This document shows positions 21,322-28,094 of a DNA stretch of 64,000 nt, piece after piece; position 1 is the stretch's first letter; each line of letters starts with the position of its first letter. The DNA comes from Phaeobacter sp. B1627 (GTDB lineage Bacteria; Pseudomonadota; Alphaproteobacteria; Rhodobacterales; Rhodobacteraceae). The notes below the pieces were generated by a model. It was not told where the DNA came from and ran no database searches. It was given only the letters and a program-made list of their open reading frames with translations. The DNA is taken from the NCBI RefSeq assembly GCF_006265095.1, contig NZ_VCNK01000001.1:124001-188000 (forward strand), in the 5' to 3' direction. The translations under genes and the position numbers were made by a program.

Positions 21322-22968
<1,647 letters not shown>

Positions 22969-22997
22969 TCATCCCGCGCATTTGCGTGACATCGAGA

Positions 22998-23028
22998 AAA
23001 GAGCCGCCATCGCGCGGCTCTTTTTTTG
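22998..23028 (+). terminator. groESL terminator
   Basis: AGAGCCGC pairs with GCGGCTCT around CATCGC and is followed by TTTTTTT. It lies 30 bp after the groEL stop. Confidence 0.95.
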
Positions 23029-23045
23029 TCTGGCGGCAAGTCCTG

Positions 23046-23099
23046 CCTGATGACCTGATGACCTGATGCAGGTGAGGCTGATGCAGGTGAGGCTGATGT
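23046..23099. repeat. Two adjoining tandem arrays (8 bp x3, 15 bp x2)
   Basis: CCTGATGA/CCTGATGA/CCTGATGC is followed immediately by AGGTGAGGCTGATGC and AGGTGAGGCTGATGT. The second unit appears to grow out of the first. It lies just beyond the groESL terminator. Confidence 0.9.
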
Positions 23100-23238
23100 C
23101 TTCGGGGCGGTTGGGGGCCACGGCGGGCCTGACGGACGACCAGCCAGCGGGGCTGATGGACGAACGGTCAGCAGGACTGACACAGGGCGAGCTCTGCGGG
23201 GCTACCGGCAGGGCGGGCGAGTATAGCAAGGCCGCGGG

Positions 23239-23688
23239 TTATTTGTCGGCCTTGCCGAAGTAGAAGCCGACAACAGTGCCGAAAATTCCGATGACGCCGC
23301 TGAAGACGATGCCGAACAGGTCTTTGACGGCTGTGACCATGGCCGCCGCAATGGGGCGATCTTCACCGGTCATTTCAATGAATGCAGCGACCATATAGGT
23401 CGCGAATGCAACCAGGATAATCGCGCTGAACAGCGACAGCATGCTCAGGGCGAATTTGCGGCGAAAATCCGCATCGCCTTCGCGTATCCGCGCGTCGACT
23501 TCGCGCTCTGTCACCGCAGGCGCCGGATCGGTCAGGTCGATTTCTACCGCAGGCGCCCGATCGGTGAGGTCGATTTCTGCGAAGCTGGCGGGTGTGTCAC
23601 CGGACTTGCTCCCTACTCCCATCGGCATGCGGTCACCCGCGCCGCCGGGGATGCTGTCGTCGCCACTGCCGTCCCCGGACCCCGTCAC
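23239..23688 (-). CDS. Unrecognised two-helix membrane protein
   Basis: Not assigned to a family. 149 residues with a Gly/Asp/Ser-rich N-terminus, then an 11-residue direct repeat ([22 protein letters not shown]; a 33-bp DNA repeat), a charged segment (REVDARIREGDADFRRKFAL), and two membrane helices: LSMLSLFSAIILVAFATYMVAAFI and LFGIVFSGVIGIFGTVVGFYFG. The second helix is glycine-rich, as in helices that pack into oligomers. GTG start with AGGA upstream; a later start would remove only the acidic leader. It neighbours a ribbon-helix-helix gene on the same strand. Confidence 0.65.
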   Translation of the reverse strand: MTGSGDGSGDDSIPGGAGDRMPMGVGSKSGDTPASFAEIDLTDRAPAVEIDLTDPAPAVTEREVDARIREGDADFRRKFALSMLSLFSAIILVAFATYMVAAFIEMTGEDRPIAAAMVTAVKDLFGIVFSGVIGIFGTVVGFYFGKADK

Positions 23689-23719
23689 GTCAGACGGTCC
23701 TGCAACAGACAGTTACCCA

Positions 23720-23759
23720 TCTGACCGTCCGGCGTCTGACCGTCCGGCGTCTGACAGCC
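23720..23759. repeat. 15-bp tandem repeat between two unknown genes
   Basis: TCTGACCGTCCGGCG twice, exact, followed by a partial TCTGACAGCC. Lies downstream of the RHH gene and upstream of the membrane-protein gene on the minus strand. Confidence 0.9.
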
Positions 23760-23805
23760 GCGCAGGCCGCTGACGTAATGGTCACAGGGTTCGGGGGCGT
23801 GGCGA

Positions 23806-24084
23806 TCACTGGTGGACAAAAACCAGTTCCGACAGAATGTTGTTGTCTTGATCCCCGACATAGATCCTCTCATTTCTCTGCAGCGACTGGCCGATCCGAT
23901 GCTGCGTGCTGAGGGCATAGCGAATGACATCGGCGTCGGTCTTGAAACCAAAGGCCGTTTTGATTTCATTCATCAACTGACGCGTTTTGGGGGAAATTCG
24001 GACGGAAATCCGCTCTTCCGTCGGTTCTTTGGGGGCCGCCTGATCTGTGCGGGAGGGGGTCTCTGCGGCTGCCTGCGCGTTCAT
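23806..24084 (-). CDS. Small ribbon-helix-helix-like protein
   Basis: 92 residues. The middle, ERISVRISPKTRQLMNEIKTAFGFKTDADVIRYALSTQ, fits a ribbon-helix-helix (CopG/MetJ-type) DNA-binding fold: a short beta-strand and two helices. A polar leader precedes it and a short hydrophobic C-terminal strand (NNILSELVFVHQ) follows. ATG has GGAGAA 6 bp upstream. The 5' leader contains five GCCAGAACCAAC-type repeats. No toxin partner is recognisable, so an antitoxin role is only a possibility; a local transcription regulator is as likely. Confidence 0.65.
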   Translation of the reverse strand: MNAQAAAETPSRTDQAAPKEPTEERISVRISPKTRQLMNEIKTAFGFKTDADVIRYALSTQHRIGQSLQRNERIYVGDQDNNILSELVFVHQ

Positions 24085-24118
24085 TTTCGTTCTCCGGATT
24101 TCATTCTTTGAGTCTGAC

Positions 24119-24178
24119 GTTGGTTCTGGCGTTGGTTCTGGCGTTGGTTCTGGCGTTGGTTCTGGCTTTGATTCTGCT
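24119..24178. repeat. 12-bp tandem array, 4 exact units plus one degenerate
   Basis: GTTGGTTCTGGC is repeated four times exactly, then TTTGATTCTGCT. It lies in the probable 5' leader of the RHH gene on the minus strand (reading GCCAGAACCAAC), 35 bp from its start codon. The exact copies suggest recent expansion. Confidence 0.95.
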
Positions 24179-24365
24179 CCCCCACCCGGCGCGAGCCGCG
24201 CTCAAGCGGCGGGATGGGGGTGCGTTATGACACAGGTATGACATATGGCGGACAGGCGTCGGAAAATCAAGAAGATATGCCGAATTATAGAGATTTTCCT
24301 TTTGCGAGCCGGGAATTGCCCCTTAGTTTTTTTGCATTGGACGAAATAGTGCGACGGATTTGAAT

Positions 24366-24800
24366 ATGAGAAATGAGAATAAAAGCCGGATTGTCTGGCG
24401 GGCAGATAAATTGGACTGGACCTCAAATTACAAAAACCGGGCCAAACGTCAGCGAAAAATTGCCCGCATCATAGAGGTTTTTGTCTCCACGCATAAAGAT
24501 GATACGGATTTTGCGGCCTACTTCAGACTGGAGTCCTATCCGGCAGAGGTTCCGGTGCGTGACCCCAAGCCGGTTCCGATGCAGCCTCGCCCGGAACCGA
24601 TCCGGCCACTTGAAAAGGAGGATGTTAAAATTGACGAAGAGACCCTGCGGCTGATTATGCCATTGTTGCCGCGGGACCGGGATCAGCGGACCCGTGTCCT
24701 GTCCAGTCTTCTTGCCCGCGCAGCTGGTCAGGATGTCAGGGAATACTGGGGACACTACCTCGAAACAGATAAGAAGGATGAGAGCAGCGATGAGTCGTAA
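24366..24800 (+). CDS. Unrecognised charged protein
   Basis: No family recognised. 144 residues, strongly charged, no membrane segment. N-terminal half is basic (RNENKSRIVWRADKLDWTSNYKNRAKRQRKIARII), a proline-rich linker follows (DPKPVPMQPRPEPIRP), and the C-terminal half is helical and acidic at the end (LLPRDRDQRTRVLSSLLARAAGQDVREYWGHYLE). The first 120 bp and the upstream 130 bp are clearly AT-richer than the surroundings, a hint of transfer. ATG 24366 is used; a TTG two codons earlier is possible. Its stop overlaps the start of the next gene. Confidence 0.55.
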   Translation: MRNENKSRIVWRADKLDWTSNYKNRAKRQRKIARIIEVFVSTHKDDTDFAAYFRLESYPAEVPVRDPKPVPMQPRPEPIRPLEKEDVKIDEETLRLIMPLLPRDRDQRTRVLSSLLARAAGQDVREYWGHYLETDKKDESSDES

Positions 24801-25077
24801 AAGTAGCAGCAAAAGCACCGAAGTTCGCTTCCCGCAGCCCGCGCATCTCATGGTTCTTGAGAGACGGGACAGGCGACGCAGCAACAGCTATTCGGATGCG
24901 GCCAGGGTTTTGGTGCAGGAAAAACTGCAGGCAGGCTACGTGGATCGGGGTCTCGTGCCGGACGGCATGCGGCGCGTGCGGGTGCAATTGCCGATGTCAG
25001 AACTTGCCAAAGTTGCAGAATTGGCGCGCGAAAACGAATGCACTCCGGAATACATAATCATACAGTGCTGCGGCTGA
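24790..25077 (+). CDS. Small protein with RHH-like segments
   Basis: 95 residues. Starts 11 bp before the end of the upstream gene, behind AAGGATGAGAG, so the two are probably coupled. Two stretches resemble strand-helix-helix units: STEVRFPQPAHLMVLERRDRRRSNSYSDAARVLVQEKL and RRVRVQLPMSELAKVAELARENECTPEYIIIQC. The resemblance is by eye and weak. Together with the divergent RHH gene it suggests a small regulatory module, but no partner enzyme is recognised. Confidence 0.5.
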   Translation: MSRKSSSKSTEVRFPQPAHLMVLERRDRRRSNSYSDAARVLVQEKLQAGYVDRGLVPDGMRRVRVQLPMSELAKVAELARENECTPEYIIIQCCG

Positions 25078-25193
25078 GCATGAAACCGCGTGATGGCCTG
25101 AGGGTTTTGTGGCGGCCTGAGGGTTTGCGCAAAACTTTTCGGCAAGCCTGGTGAATAATATCGACACCCCGGGTGTTTCCATGTGAGAGGCGG

Positions 25194-26102
25194 ATGAAAT
25201 ACCGCCGTCACTCCGGAAACAAGGTCCCAGTCATGCCGCAGAAAATCGATGGTCTTTCCTATCCTTCTACAATTGATGAAGTTATTGCATTCAAACCCTT
25301 CCTCAAGGATTATCTCTCGGCCGTGGGCGCCGGAGAGCTGCGCAATATGGTCGCCTTCCTCATGGAGGCTCCGACCAACGGGTTGAAGGCCTACGACAAA
25401 TTCCTCGGCCCCAATGCATCGCACCCGTTCGGGGTGGACCAGATGACCGTCGCCATGATGCAGGAGGCGATGATGAGCGCGCGCGCAGATGACGGCAAAA
25501 ACTGGCCGCCGATCCTCACCAAAGTGACCAATCAGGTCACCCGCAGGATGAACGAAAAGGAACTGCCCGACTATTTTGCCAGCAAGGCCTTCGCGGAAGA
25601 TCACAAGATCAAACTGTTCGAGCGCACCCGCACGGTCATGGGGGATACGAAAGAGGCGGCCAAACGGCTCGGGGTCAAAAGCAGCGCCTATGATCTTGAG
25701 CAGTTGATGATGGCGATCACCTCGCAGGACAAGAAGAAAATCGCCGCCTATTGCCGCCTGGTGATCCAGGATAACAACCTTGGGTGCGATGCAAATACCC
25801 TGGTGAAGGCGCTGGTGAAACGTCAGAAACTTGCCACGGCAGACGCGCCGGCCGCCGATCCGGCTGCCAATGTCGATGTCAGCACGAAGAAACTGCTGCT
25901 CTGTGGCTTTGAAAACGTCAAGGACACAAAGGTCAAGGCGGCGGCGCTCGAGTTTGCCCAGGCCGTCGCGCTGACCGATAATGCGATGATTATCCGGACC
26001 TATAAGGTGCTGATGAAGCTTGAAAAACCGGGTTCTTTGGCGGCGAATACAAATGCCGGCGGGATGGCGAAGATGTTCAAGAAATTCAAGATCGTGGCCT
26101 GA
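25194..26102 (+). CDS. Unrecognised 302-residue protein
   Basis: No family recognised. Soluble, mainly helical. Features: IDEVIAFKPFLKDYLSAVGAGELRNMVAFLMEAPTNG, several Met-rich helices (QMTVAMMQEAMMSAR), a central charged helix, an Ala-rich linker (ADAPAADPAANVD) and a basic C-terminus (MAKMFKKFKIVA). ATG 25194 follows GAGAGGCGG; ATG 25233 (MPQKIDGLSYPS) is a plausible alternative. Codon use is like the chromosome. It lies alone after the RHH-like genes. The stop codon is part of a 15-bp tandem repeat. Confidence 0.65.
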   Translation: MKYRRHSGNKVPVMPQKIDGLSYPSTIDEVIAFKPFLKDYLSAVGAGELRNMVAFLMEAPTNGLKAYDKFLGPNASHPFGVDQMTVAMMQEAMMSARADDGKNWPPILTKVTNQVTRRMNEKELPDYFASKAFAEDHKIKLFERTRTVMGDTKEAAKRLGVKSSAYDLEQLMMAITSQDKKKIAAYCRLVIQDNNLGCDANTLVKALVKRQKLATADAPAADPAANVDVSTKKLLLCGFENVKDTKVKAAALEFAQAVALTDNAMIIRTYKVLMKLEKPGSLAANTNAGGMAKMFKKFKIVA

Positions 26103-26157
26103 TTTACACCGGCCTGATTTACACTGACCTGTTCTTTACACTGGCCTGTTCCCTCTG
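26096..26157. repeat. 15-bp tandem repeat containing the stop codon
   Basis: GGCCTGATTTACACC, GGCCTGATTTACACT, then a 17-bp variant and a partial unit. The TGA stop of the 302-residue protein lies in the first copy. Confidence 0.92.
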
Positions 26158-26347
26158 AGGGGACCTGTCTGATGTGTCCGATTGCTCCGCCGGTTTCCCG
26201 CCGGCGGGGCAGTCCGTTGCGTCCTCGGATCAGGGGGGCAGGCTTAGGACCGGCCCGCTTTGTATGGGCACAATTTTTTTCTTCTGGTTTTTTGTACCCC
26301 TGTGTTACGAAATTTATGTGTTCAACCAAGGGTAGATGGAGGCAAAG

Positions 26348-26485
26348 ATGACCAAGTTTCAGAATTCAATGCGCTCCGTCGCCGTACGAGTGGATGCGGT
26401 GCAATCGGGGGCCCTGCGCCCTGCTGCAGGCATCTCATATCTAGGCTGCTTCAACGCGGGTCCGGTTTACGCCATTACCGGCTGA
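26348..26485 (+). CDS. Possible 45-residue protein
   Basis: Short frame with a very good ribosome-binding site (GATGGAGGCAAAG-ATG) behind an AT-rich, promoter-like stretch. The product begins MTKFQNSMRSVAVRVDAV and ends AGPVYAITG; no motif is recognised. The next gene encodes a DUF1127-like small protein, and such small genes are common in this group. Without a homologue this remains tentative. Confidence 0.35.
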   Translation: MTKFQNSMRSVAVRVDAVQSGALRPAAGISYLGCFNAGPVYAITG

Positions 26486-26774
26486 CGACCGACCTTGCCG
26501 ATCCGTCGCAGCGCTGATCGCTCGTGCTTGGGGCCTGCCTGCTGTGCATGCTCCGGCTGATACACATTTTCCAAACCTGACAGACTGGTTCCCCTGCGCC
26601 TCTTTTGCGATCGGGTGACTGCTTTCACCTGTGTCGGTCGCGTTTCGCGCCCTGCGGGTGGGGCCTTGATTTCCGACCTCCATCCGGTCGCATCAGACCA
26701 CCCCGGGGGCGCCCGTCTGTCGTTCGTTCCGATCCATATTACAAGGGACCGCCCAGGCCGGGCGGACAAACGAT

Positions 26775-27083
26775 ATGACACAGATTTCATCCACAGCCGG
26801 CGTCTTGCCGATCAATCCCGCTCTGGCCAATCCCGCTCTCGCCCGTCTCGTGGCCGAGGAGCATTTCCGCAATCTCAGCCTGCTCCGGCGTCTGGGGCTC
26901 GCCCTGCGGCTGGTGACGATCCGCCGGGCAGCGCGGGACAGGCGGGGCAGGCGGGGCAGGCGGGACGAACCGCTGGGCACTGTCGGCGTCGGGCTGAGCG
27001 CCCATATTCGCGCCGATATCGGCTTGCCCTGCGCCTATGAGCGGGTGGAGCCGCCGCATTGGTATCCTCCGCCGTTCTACTAG
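26775..27083 (+). CDS. DUF1127-like small protein
   Basis: 102 residues. The C-terminal half reads VGLSAHIRADIGLPCAYERVEPPHWYPPPFY; the L-x-D-I-G-L core is the signature of DUF1127 proteins, usually with basic arginines before it, and here RRAARDRRGRRGRRDE precedes. The basic stretch contains an imperfect GGCGGGGCA repeat. DUF1127 proteins in alphaproteobacteria are linked to stress and phosphate adaptation; that is family knowledge. ATG is weakly supported by GGACAAACG. Confidence 0.6.
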   Translation: MTQISSTAGVLPINPALANPALARLVAEEHFRNLSLLRRLGLALRLVTIRRAARDRRGRRGRRDEPLGTVGVGLSAHIRADIGLPCAYERVEPPHWYPPPFY

Positions 27084-27087
27084 GGGC

Positions 27088-27116
27088 GCGGTCAGGGCTG
27101 GCGCGGCCCTGACCGC
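27088..27116. terminator. Hairpin after the DUF1127-like gene
   Basis: GCGGTCAGGG pairs perfectly with CCCTGACCGC (10 bp) around a 9-nt loop, 4 bp after the stop. No U-tract follows, so termination is probable but not certain. Confidence 0.6.
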
Positions 27117-27239
27117 AGCGCGCACCCGGTTGTGACGGGTCGTGCCTTGACTTGGGGCGGCAGGCCTGCTGTCTGGCGGCTGCTGCCTGGCCCTCATGTC
27201 AACGCAAAGGCGGCTCGGAATTCGCAAAGAAGAGACCCT

Positions 27240-28094
27240 ATGCGCCTGATTGCTCTCACTGTTGTCGTCATGATCGCCTTTGCGGCGAATTCCATCCTTG
27301 GTCGCTGGGCGATTGGTCCGGGGCATATGGATGCCACCGGTTTCGGCCTCCTGCGGCTGGCGTCCGGGGCGGTGATGCTGGGGCTGTTGTGCCTGCTGCA
27401 GAGGCAGCCTCTGGCCGAAAGCTGGCGGCGGTCGCTGGCCGGGGGGGCGGCGCTGACTCTCTATATGGTGGGGTTTTCGGTGGCCTATGTGGCGCTGGAC
27501 GCGGGGCTCGGGGCGCTGGTGCTGTTTGGGGTCGTGCAGGTGTCGATGTTCGGCTGGGGGCTGATCCGCCGTCAGCCGGCGGCGCCGCTGCAGATCCTGG
27601 GCGCGGCGCTGGCGCTGTCCGGGCTGGCCTATGTGGTCTGGCCCGGCGGCGCGGTGGAGGCCCCGCTCTGGGCGGTGCTGTGGATGGGGGCCGCCGGGCT
27701 GGGCTGGGGCATCTATAGCCTGGTGGGCCGCGGCGCACAGAGGCCGGTCGCCGCAAGCGCGGTGAATTTTGCCCTCGCGACGGGGATGATCCTGCCGGCC
27801 GTCTGGTGGTTCGGCGGCGCTGCGGTGGTGACGCCGCTGGGCTGCCTGCTGGCGGTGGTGTCGGGGGCGGGCACCTCGGGGCTGGGCTATGCCCTTTGGT
27901 ATCGGGTGCTGCCGCAGATCCCCGGCCCGGTGGCAGCCACGGTGCAGCTGAGCGTGCCGGTGATCGCGATTCTGGCGGGCACGGTGATCCTGGGGGAGCC
28001 GGTCGGCGCGCGGCTGCTGTTGGGAACGGTGGCGGTTCTGGGCGGGATTGCCGTGGTGATCCTGTGTCCGCCGCGCAAAATCCGCAGCAGCTGA
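27240..28094 (+). CDS. EamA/DMT-superfamily transporter
   Basis: Inner-membrane protein (284 residues) with ten predicted helices in two EamA repeats, the layout of drug/metabolite transporters. First repeat: [26 protein letters not shown] with [16 protein letters not shown]; second: [24 protein letters not shown] and the closing [33 protein letters not shown], the typical EamA signature. ATG 27240 follows AAGAAGAGACC; the open frame upstream lacks helices. Substrate unknown. A secreted hydrolase and PhnM follow on the same strand at short distances. Confidence 0.92.

What the first reader, a model, noticed from the sequence alone, without database searches (positions are those of the whole stretch)
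23239..26102. Cluster of unrecognised genes with ribbon-helix-helix-like proteins
Four to five proteins without recognised families sit together between groEL and a DMT transporter: a two-helix membrane protein with an internal 11-residue repeat, an RHH-like protein, a divergent charged protein overlapping a second RHH-like protein, and a 302-residue helical protein. The divergent promoter region (24.24-24.48 kb) is clearly AT-rich. The layout (DNA-binding small proteins plus a membrane protein plus a soluble effector-size protein) could be a small mobile or defence-like module.
Basis: partly seen in the sequence, partly recalled or inferred. Interest (0 to 1): 0.55.

Follow-up and report, generated by a model that had tools for sequence, protein, structure and literature searches.

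The report
Bacterial RGS-homology gene beside groEL
The five unnamed genes next to groEL look like separate accessory genes rather than one defence module, and the largest belongs to a small bacterial family with a protein domain best known from the G-protein switches of eukaryotes.

Summary
The five reading frames are there, but they are not shown to be one module. They lie in a single 3.1-kb segment (23035-26158) that starts just past the groEL terminator and is absent from the closest congener, G156. Its pieces recur separately around the same groEL-DMT-phnM neighbourhood: B+A in another genus, D in several, E alone in a congener. No PADLOC match, and no plasmid, phage or viral-contig relative where searched. 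D is predicted to be a tandem ribbon-helix-helix protein (Z 10.6). B looks like a single RHH protein, A is a two-helix membrane protein, C has no relative found.

The notable gene is E. It belongs to a family of 13 loci (two incomplete) in the window's bacterial family whose N-terminal domain is homologous to eukaryotic RGS domains: the family profile's first 28 PDB rows are all RGS sequences (best E 2.8e-6), 4 of 11 members pass Pfam's RGS cut-off, and E's predicted fold matches RGS structures (Z 10.2). E itself scores below that cut-off and keeps 0 of 8 G-alpha-contact residues; no G-alpha match passed its cut-off in 10 genomes; one relative (G334b) keeps 7 of 8. E is therefore most likely a non-GAP interaction protein (inference).

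The parts
22993..23028 (+). groEL terminator hairpin; the left border of the variable segment lies just past it
   Evidence: 51 nt, MFE -24.9 kcal/mol, z -4.29, 0 of 200 shuffles as good; matches to five congeners end at 23025-23035
23035..26158 (.). 3.1-kb segment holding A-E, absent from the congener G156
   Evidence: G156 matches 22500-23034 (96%) and 26159-27598 (72%) with 26 bp between
23239..23688 (-). gene A: 149-aa two-helix membrane protein with an 11-residue tandem repeat before the first helix
   Evidence: phrog_1544 (unknown function) E 1.1e-6; relative in G144, 39% identity
23806..24084 (-). gene B: 92-aa RHH-like protein, upstream of A on the same strand; B-A pair also in G144
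   Evidence: weak profile match to CopG/Arc/MetJ antidote structures, E 0.19
24085..24365 (.). divergent intergenic region between B and C, with the start of the window's most AT-rich stretch and a 12-bp x 5.3 tandem repeat (24113-24176)
   Evidence: one weak promoter-like match at 24238-24267
24366..24800 (+). gene C: 144-aa charged protein overlapping D by 11 nt; no relative found where searched
24790..25077 (+). gene D: 95-aa tandem (two-unit) ribbon-helix-helix protein, predicted
   Evidence: AlphaFold2 model pLDDT 77.6, pTM 0.65, strand-helix-helix twice; VIA-align Z 10.6, 89 aligned, F-plasmid relaxosome chain; family profile matches in 17 of 394 genomes, own included
25233..26102 (+). 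gene E: 289-aa helical protein of the bacterial RGS-homology family
25245..25607 (+). RGS-homology domain of E (about residues 5-125)
   Evidence: VIA-align: 39 of the top 40 rows are RGS or GRK structures, best Z 10.2, rmsd 3.1, 114 aligned; Pfam RGS 18.8 bits, below the cut-off of 23.9

Best explanation
The stretch is an accessory interval between the groEL terminator and a DMT-transporter/phnM block, filled with independently distributed small genes. Within it, E is a member of a sparse, strongly diverged family of single genes in the window's bacterial family (Rhodobacteraceae, judged from its named relatives) carrying an N-terminal RGS-homology domain (shown by family profile, Pfam on some members and predicted fold) plus a helical C-terminal part of unknown role. 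Inferred mechanism: because E has none of eight G-alpha-contact residues and no G-alpha match passed its cut-off in its genome, it does not stimulate a G-alpha GTPase; it most likely uses the helical bundle as a cytoplasmic protein-interaction surface for some other partner, as non-GAP RGS-homology domains do in eukaryotes (recalled). D is most likely a tandem RHH DNA-binding regulator of its own neighbourhood (in G063 its stop codon directly abuts the DMT start), and B with A a separate RHH plus membrane-protein pair. Shown: location, presence/absence, family-level homology of E, predicted fold of D and E. Inferred: all biochemical roles.
For: Empty site in G156. Separate recurrence of B+A (G144), D (G153 and G149 in the interval, G063 beside DMT) and E (G159). 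RGS: a profile of 11 members against PDB sequences gives RGS sequences as its first 28 rows (several are constructs of one protein), best E 2.8e-6, 19 of them at E <= 0.001; RGS1 and RGS10 score 29.7 and 29.0 bits against 7.3 for the best of 400 shuffled sequences; still 25.2 and 21.7 bits without the most RGS-like member; that member alone finds RGS10 at E 0.0023; Pfam RGS over the curated cut-off in 4 of 11 members; fold match. 0 of 8 contact residues in E. G-alpha family over cut-off in 0 of 10 genomes. D.
Against: E alone is a weak RGS match: 18.8 bits, below Pfam's cut-off; a profile of E and its closest relative alone scores RGS1/RGS10 no better than shuffles (2.3 and 5.2 against 6.4 bits), and five long forms together give only E 1.2-1.5. 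Five of 11 members have no Pfam RGS match, and L073 alone finds nothing in PDB sequences. Foldseek's best row is an unrelated axonemal chain (E 0.10), its RGS rows are at E 0.36 or worse, and Z about 10 is within what helical bundles can reach by a common arrangement (tool note). The eight sites come from an alignment with gaps, so single sites may be misplaced. Weak G-alpha matches below the cut-off exist in 2 of 10 genomes, as in 10 of 14 controls. A-E might still cooperate in this strain: they form one segment here, and C-D-E could be one transcript.
Confidence: 0.62

Rival explanations
1. A-E form one small mobile or defence module: RHH regulators B and D control a divergent promoter, A is a membrane effector or sensor and E a soluble effector.
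For: One contiguous difference relative to G156; divergent AT-rich region; RHH-type proteins on both sides; other cargo in the same interval of congeners.
Against: The pieces occur separately in this neighbourhood; PADLOC none; no plasmid, phage or viral-contig relatives where searched; D-family matches have groEL, DMT or phnM within about 1.5 kb in 11 of 16 other genomes.
Confidence: 0.12
2. E and its family are host-directed proteins: RGS domains taken from eukaryotes by marine bacteria and used on G-protein signalling of sponges, corals or algae.
For: Homology of the family to eukaryotic RGS; one member (G334b) keeps 7 of 8 contact residues; no G-alpha over the cut-off in the bacteria; Tateyamaria sp. 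Alg231-49, which has two copies, was isolated from the sponge Spongia officinalis (PMC6374434, passages read).
Confidence: 0.12
3. The RGS resemblance is convergence on a common helical bundle, and E is an unrelated bacterial helical protein.
For: Weak scores for E itself.
Against: Four members pass the curated Pfam cut-off, two of them over nearly the whole domain; the profile singles out RGS sequences among 177,635 distinct PDB sequences; the asparagine is kept in 6 of 11 members.
Confidence: 0.1
4. B and A are a toxin-antitoxin pair with an RHH antidote (B) and a membrane toxin (A).
For: B's best structural matches by profile are CopG/Arc/MetJ addiction-module antidotes; B precedes A in both genomes and the frames overlap in G144.
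Against: The matches are weak (E 0.19 and 0.72); A matches no toxin family.
Confidence: 0.12

Closest known systems
RGS / RGS-homology domain proteins (Pfam PF00615)
   Same: Predicted fold over about residues 5-125; family profile finds RGS sequences; four of 11 members pass the Pfam cut-off
   Different: Bacterial; the window's E is below the cut-off and lacks all 8 G-alpha-contact residues; no G-alpha over cut-off in the genome; N-terminal 'KIDGxxYP' motif and a C-terminal helical part outside the matched region
TraY-type tandem RHH proteins (F-plasmid relaxosome chains 9f0x-9f12; the name TraY is recalled) and AvtR (4hv0)
   Same: D: two strand-helix-helix units in one chain, Z 10.6 over 89 residues (AvtR Z 6.2 over 73)
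   Different: 11-12% identity; chromosomal gene found near groEL/DMT/phnM
CopG/Arc/MetJ antidotes (6x0a, 5ceg)
   Same: B: weak profile match over positions 24-74 (E 0.19)
   Different: Partner gene A is a membrane protein without a toxin family match
PHROG family phrog_1544 (unknown function)
   Same: A: residues 66-148 match at E 1.1e-6
   Different: Function of that family unknown; no viral-contig or plasmid locus encodes a relative of A at the limits used; phage records were not searched with A

Membership tests
RGS domain (PF00615) | Score above Pfam's curated cut-off (23.9 bits) | tested here: not met
   Window E 18.8 bits. Family: 4 of 11 members met it (25.0, 27.9, 26.0, 27.0), 2 below, 5 no match
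RGS domain (PF00615) | RGS helical fold | tested here: met
   Predicted model only: 39 of the top 40 VIA-align rows are RGS/GRK, best Z 10.2, rmsd 3.1, 114 residues; Foldseek best RGS row E 0.36, prob 0.99
RGS domain (PF00615) | Sequence homology of the family to known RGS proteins | tested here: met
   11-member profile, best E 2.8e-6 against PDB sequences; holds without L091 (E 1.4e-4 and 0.0017); not shown by window + L006 alone
RGS proteins acting as G-alpha GAPs | Asparagine and other G-alpha-contact residues | tested here: not met
   Window E 0 of 8; G334b 7 of 8; the asparagine kept in 6 of 11. Role of the asparagine: PMC6499889 passages; site list and RGS4 numbering recalled
RGS proteins acting as G-alpha GAPs | A G-alpha partner in the same genome | tested here: not met
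   PF00503 over cut-off in 0 of 10 genomes; weak matches below it in 2 of 10
RGS proteins acting as G-alpha GAPs | GTPase-activating activity | not testable with these tools
   needs purified proteins
Ribbon-helix-helix (gene D) | Strand-helix-helix unit(s) matching RHH structures | tested here: met
   predicted model
Ribbon-helix-helix (gene D) | Match to a curated RHH sequence family | tested here: not met
   Pfam and NCBIfam none
Ribbon-helix-helix (gene D) | DNA binding | not testable with these tools
   needs a binding assay
Toxin-antitoxin pair (B-A) | RHH antidote | tested here: inconclusive
   E 0.19
Toxin-antitoxin pair (B-A) | Recognised toxin next to it | tested here: not met
   A matches no toxin family
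Known anti-phage defence systems | Match to PADLOC models | tested here: not met
   none of five proteins at E <= 5
Mobile module | Clean presence/absence site | tested here: met
Mobile module | Integration gene, tRNA target or mobile-element relatives | tested here: not met
   no tRNA in the window; none of the five genes matches an integrase model; no relatives in plasmids, phages or viral contigs where searched

The most novel reading that the evidence does not exclude
Rhodobacteraceae carry a real, apparently undescribed branch of RGS-domain proteins. Some members (such as G334b, with 7 of 8 contact residues) still bind and switch off G-alpha-like GTPases, either those of eukaryotic partners or an unrecognised bacterial GTPase, while others such as E have turned the same domain into an adaptor for a new bacterial partner.
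Probability: 0.2. Interest if true: 0.82.

Novelty: new variant of a known kind. Interest (0 to 1): 0.56.

Why it matters
RGS domains are best known as regulators of heterotrimeric G proteins, a eukaryotic system. A bacterial family of them in genomes without a recognisable G-alpha, graded from nearly canonical to fully diverged contact sites, gives a direct handle on two questions: where the RGS domain came from or went to, and what such a domain does when there is no G-alpha to act on. The nearly canonical member can be assayed on purified G-alpha by standard methods. The locus itself shows a variable pocket just past the groEL terminator that holds different genes in different congeners.

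Tried and rejected
Defence or mobile module: see rivals. Internal duplication in E's C-terminal part: a profile comparison of two proposed units gave probability 1.2%, P 0.044, so it is not claimed. Shared neighbours as a clue to E's partner: apart from the window/G159 and G257b/G563 pairs, only broad families recur among the 13 neighbourhoods (by eye LysR-type regulators in 3 loci, ABC-type ATPases in 3, and two further two-locus links), so nothing specific. RGS from the single protein L073 against PDB sequences: no match. D profile against PDB sequences: no useful match; a TALE chain at 0.014 and, at 0.57, a 45-residue proline-dehydrogenase fragment. A profile against PDB: one row at E 2.1. 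Viral predicted structures with E: nothing at E <= 0.001; a few RGS proteins of giant viruses among weak rows. The weak places for A's profile in other genomes (3 of the 5 genomes, and those) and for E in G160 (E 0.018) were not counted as relatives. Two family loci were dropped before the 11-row alignment: G256b (partial match, frame start unclear) and G205 (a stop codon inside the frame). L065-L067 look like doubtful D matches but stay in the denominator of 11 of 16. C was not searched in whole genomes. D was not scanned in viral contigs (one search failed) nor in phage records.

Literature: 'bacterial RGS' (0 papers); RGS domain with prokaryot/G protein signaling (27 papers, 20 listed), horizontal gene transfer (69, 15 listed), proteobacteria (1), bacterial genomes (0), eukaryotic-like/symbiont (12, 10 listed), Rhodobacter (2): no title or abstract start in the rows listed concerns RGS domains of bacteria; unlisted rows were not seen. 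'tandem ribbon-helix-helix' 0 papers. This is an open-access library only; subscription papers and database annotation such as InterPro were not seen, and bacterial RGS entries may exist there.

Full report
What is there. Between groEL (21325-22968) and a DMT transporter (about 27240-28094) lie five frames: A 23239-23688 (-), B 23806-24084 (-), C 24366-24800 (+), D 24790-25077 (+) and E. E's relatives start with 'MPQKIDG', which puts its start at 25233 and its length at 289 aa. A, B, D and E have relatives elsewhere; C has none where searched (family libraries, plasmids, phages).

Place. The window is C1:124001-188000 of a genome of 134 contigs. In the genus (18 genomes) the DMT transporter was found in 17. 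I fetched what was held upstream of it in all 16 others, in some cut short by a contig end; groEL lies within the stretch in 11 of the 16. The closest, G156 (groEL 99.5%, DMT 92% identical), matches the window up to 23034 and from 26159 on, with 26 bp between. So the five genes form one 3.1-kb difference, gained here or lost there, whose left border lies just past a strong groEL terminator hairpin (z -4.29). Other congeners have other frames there; by eye, not tested, they look like an HNH endonuclease (G153, G161), an isochorismatase-like gene with a MarR-like gene (G160), an alkene-reductase-like gene (G149) and LysR-like genes (G149, G151, G161, G164).

Pieces, not a module. B+A recur in G144, another genus, on the same strand within the groEL-DMT interval. 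B was found in 2 of 149 and A convincingly in 2 of 295 family genomes, own included. D's family profile matched 17 of 394 genomes; of the 16 besides the window, 11 have groEL (7), DMT (5) or phnM (5) within about 1.5 kb. In G063 D's stop codon directly abuts the DMT start, although no groEL lies in the 19 kb fetched there. D is thus a recurrent resident of this neighbourhood. With a nine-row alignment D is predicted as strand-helix-helix twice (pLDDT 77.6, pTM 0.65). Foldseek's best row is a chain of the F-plasmid relaxosome (E 7e-4); VIA-align gives such chains Z 10.6 (rmsd 2.5, 89 aligned), single-chain Arc 8.1, DndE 7.7 and AvtR 6.2: a tandem ribbon-helix-helix protein.

E and the RGS domain. 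Pfam gave a sub-threshold RGS match for E (18.8 bits). The relative in G159 passes the cut-off (25.0). A search of 292 genomes of the order with the Pfam model rang in three: the window's genome, G371 (both under the cut-off) and G563 (over it), and in 0 of 14 control genomes. A profile of five members then found matches in 7 of 394 family genomes, 11 places, among them a weak second copy in the window's own genome (G000:C48, E 5e-10, beside a parE-like gene by eye). With G159 and G563 this makes 13 loci, two of them incomplete. Eleven were aligned. Searched against the sequences of all PDB chains, this profile returns RGS sequences as its first 28 rows (several are constructs of one protein), best E 2.8e-6. 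Controls: RGS1 and RGS10 score 29.7 and 29.0 bits, the best of 400 shuffled versions 7.3. Leave-out: without the most RGS-like member still 25.2 and 21.7; four short members alone 19.0 and 22.8; five long members alone 12.4 and 12.7 (best shuffle 7.9); the window and its nearest relative alone 2.3 and 5.2, no better than shuffles (6.4). Single proteins: L091 finds RGS10 at E 0.0023, L073 nothing. So homology to RGS rests on the family, not on E alone. The predicted structure of E (pLDDT 85.7, pTM 0.56) supports it: Foldseek's rows are mostly RGS, although at E 0.36 or worse and behind one unrelated row, and 39 of the top 40 VIA-align rows are RGS or GRK chains, Z up to 10.2 over 114 residues, model range about 4-130. 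The C-terminal half was barely tested and I claim no fold for it.

Can E act as an RGS? At eight positions that touch G-alpha in known complexes (list and RGS4 numbering recalled; the asparagine's contact with G-alpha's catalytic glutamine is stated in PMC6499889, passages read), G334b keeps 7 of 8, six of 11 members keep the asparagine, and the window's E keeps none. The G-alpha family passed its cut-off in 0 of 10 genomes searched, nine of them RGS bearers; weak matches below it occurred in 2 of 10, as in 10 of 14 controls. So the classical function is very unlikely for E inside its own cell. The family's loci share no specific neighbour: apart from the window/G159 and G257b/G563 pairs only broad families recur, by eye LysR-type regulators and ABC-type ATPases in three loci each and two more two-locus links. 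I therefore favour a non-GAP interaction role, which is inference.

Host angle. The name Rhodobacteraceae for the window's family is judged from its named relatives.

What is known. In the open library the phrase 'bacterial RGS' occurs in no paper, and in six further searches no row listed concerns RGS domains of bacteria (three of these lists were cut). NCBIfam has no model near its cut-off for six members tested. Database annotation outside these tools was not seen. PMC9283941 and PMC11061236 were read in passages only; other papers only as listings.

Verdict. The accessory reading is supported, the single-module reading is not. The new point is E: a diverged member of a bacterial RGS-homology family.

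Noticed in passing
L091:8272-9264 (G334): A bacterial protein whose RGS domain keeps 7 of 8 G-alpha-contact residues, with a C-terminal part that by eye resembles that of the window's E.
   Followed up: partly
L086:8002-8598 (G000:C48, own genome): A second, very diverged family member in the window's own genome, next to what looks by eye like parE.
   Followed up: partly
L043:4791-5816 and L046:5185-6105 (G153, G161): An HNH-endonuclease-like gene (by eye) occupies the same groEL-DMT interval in two congeners; possibly a restriction-type gene.
   Followed up: no
window 24113-24176, 23063-23098, 23720-23755, 26095-26148: Several short tandem repeats (12-17 bp units) in the intergenic DNA around this locus, one of them (12 bp x 5.3) just upstream of gene B.
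   Followed up: no
window 26260-26385: A stretch outside the five genes conserved at about 68-72% DNA identity in G152, G155 and G160, followed by eye by a possible 45-aa frame at 26349; not explained.
   Followed up: no
window 26775-27083: A small arginine-rich protein conserved upstream of the DMT transporter in 7 of the 16 congener stretches fetched; resembles DUF1127 by eye only.
   Followed up: no
L094:7689-8312 (G205): A family member with a stop codon inside its frame, so possibly decaying there.
   Followed up: no
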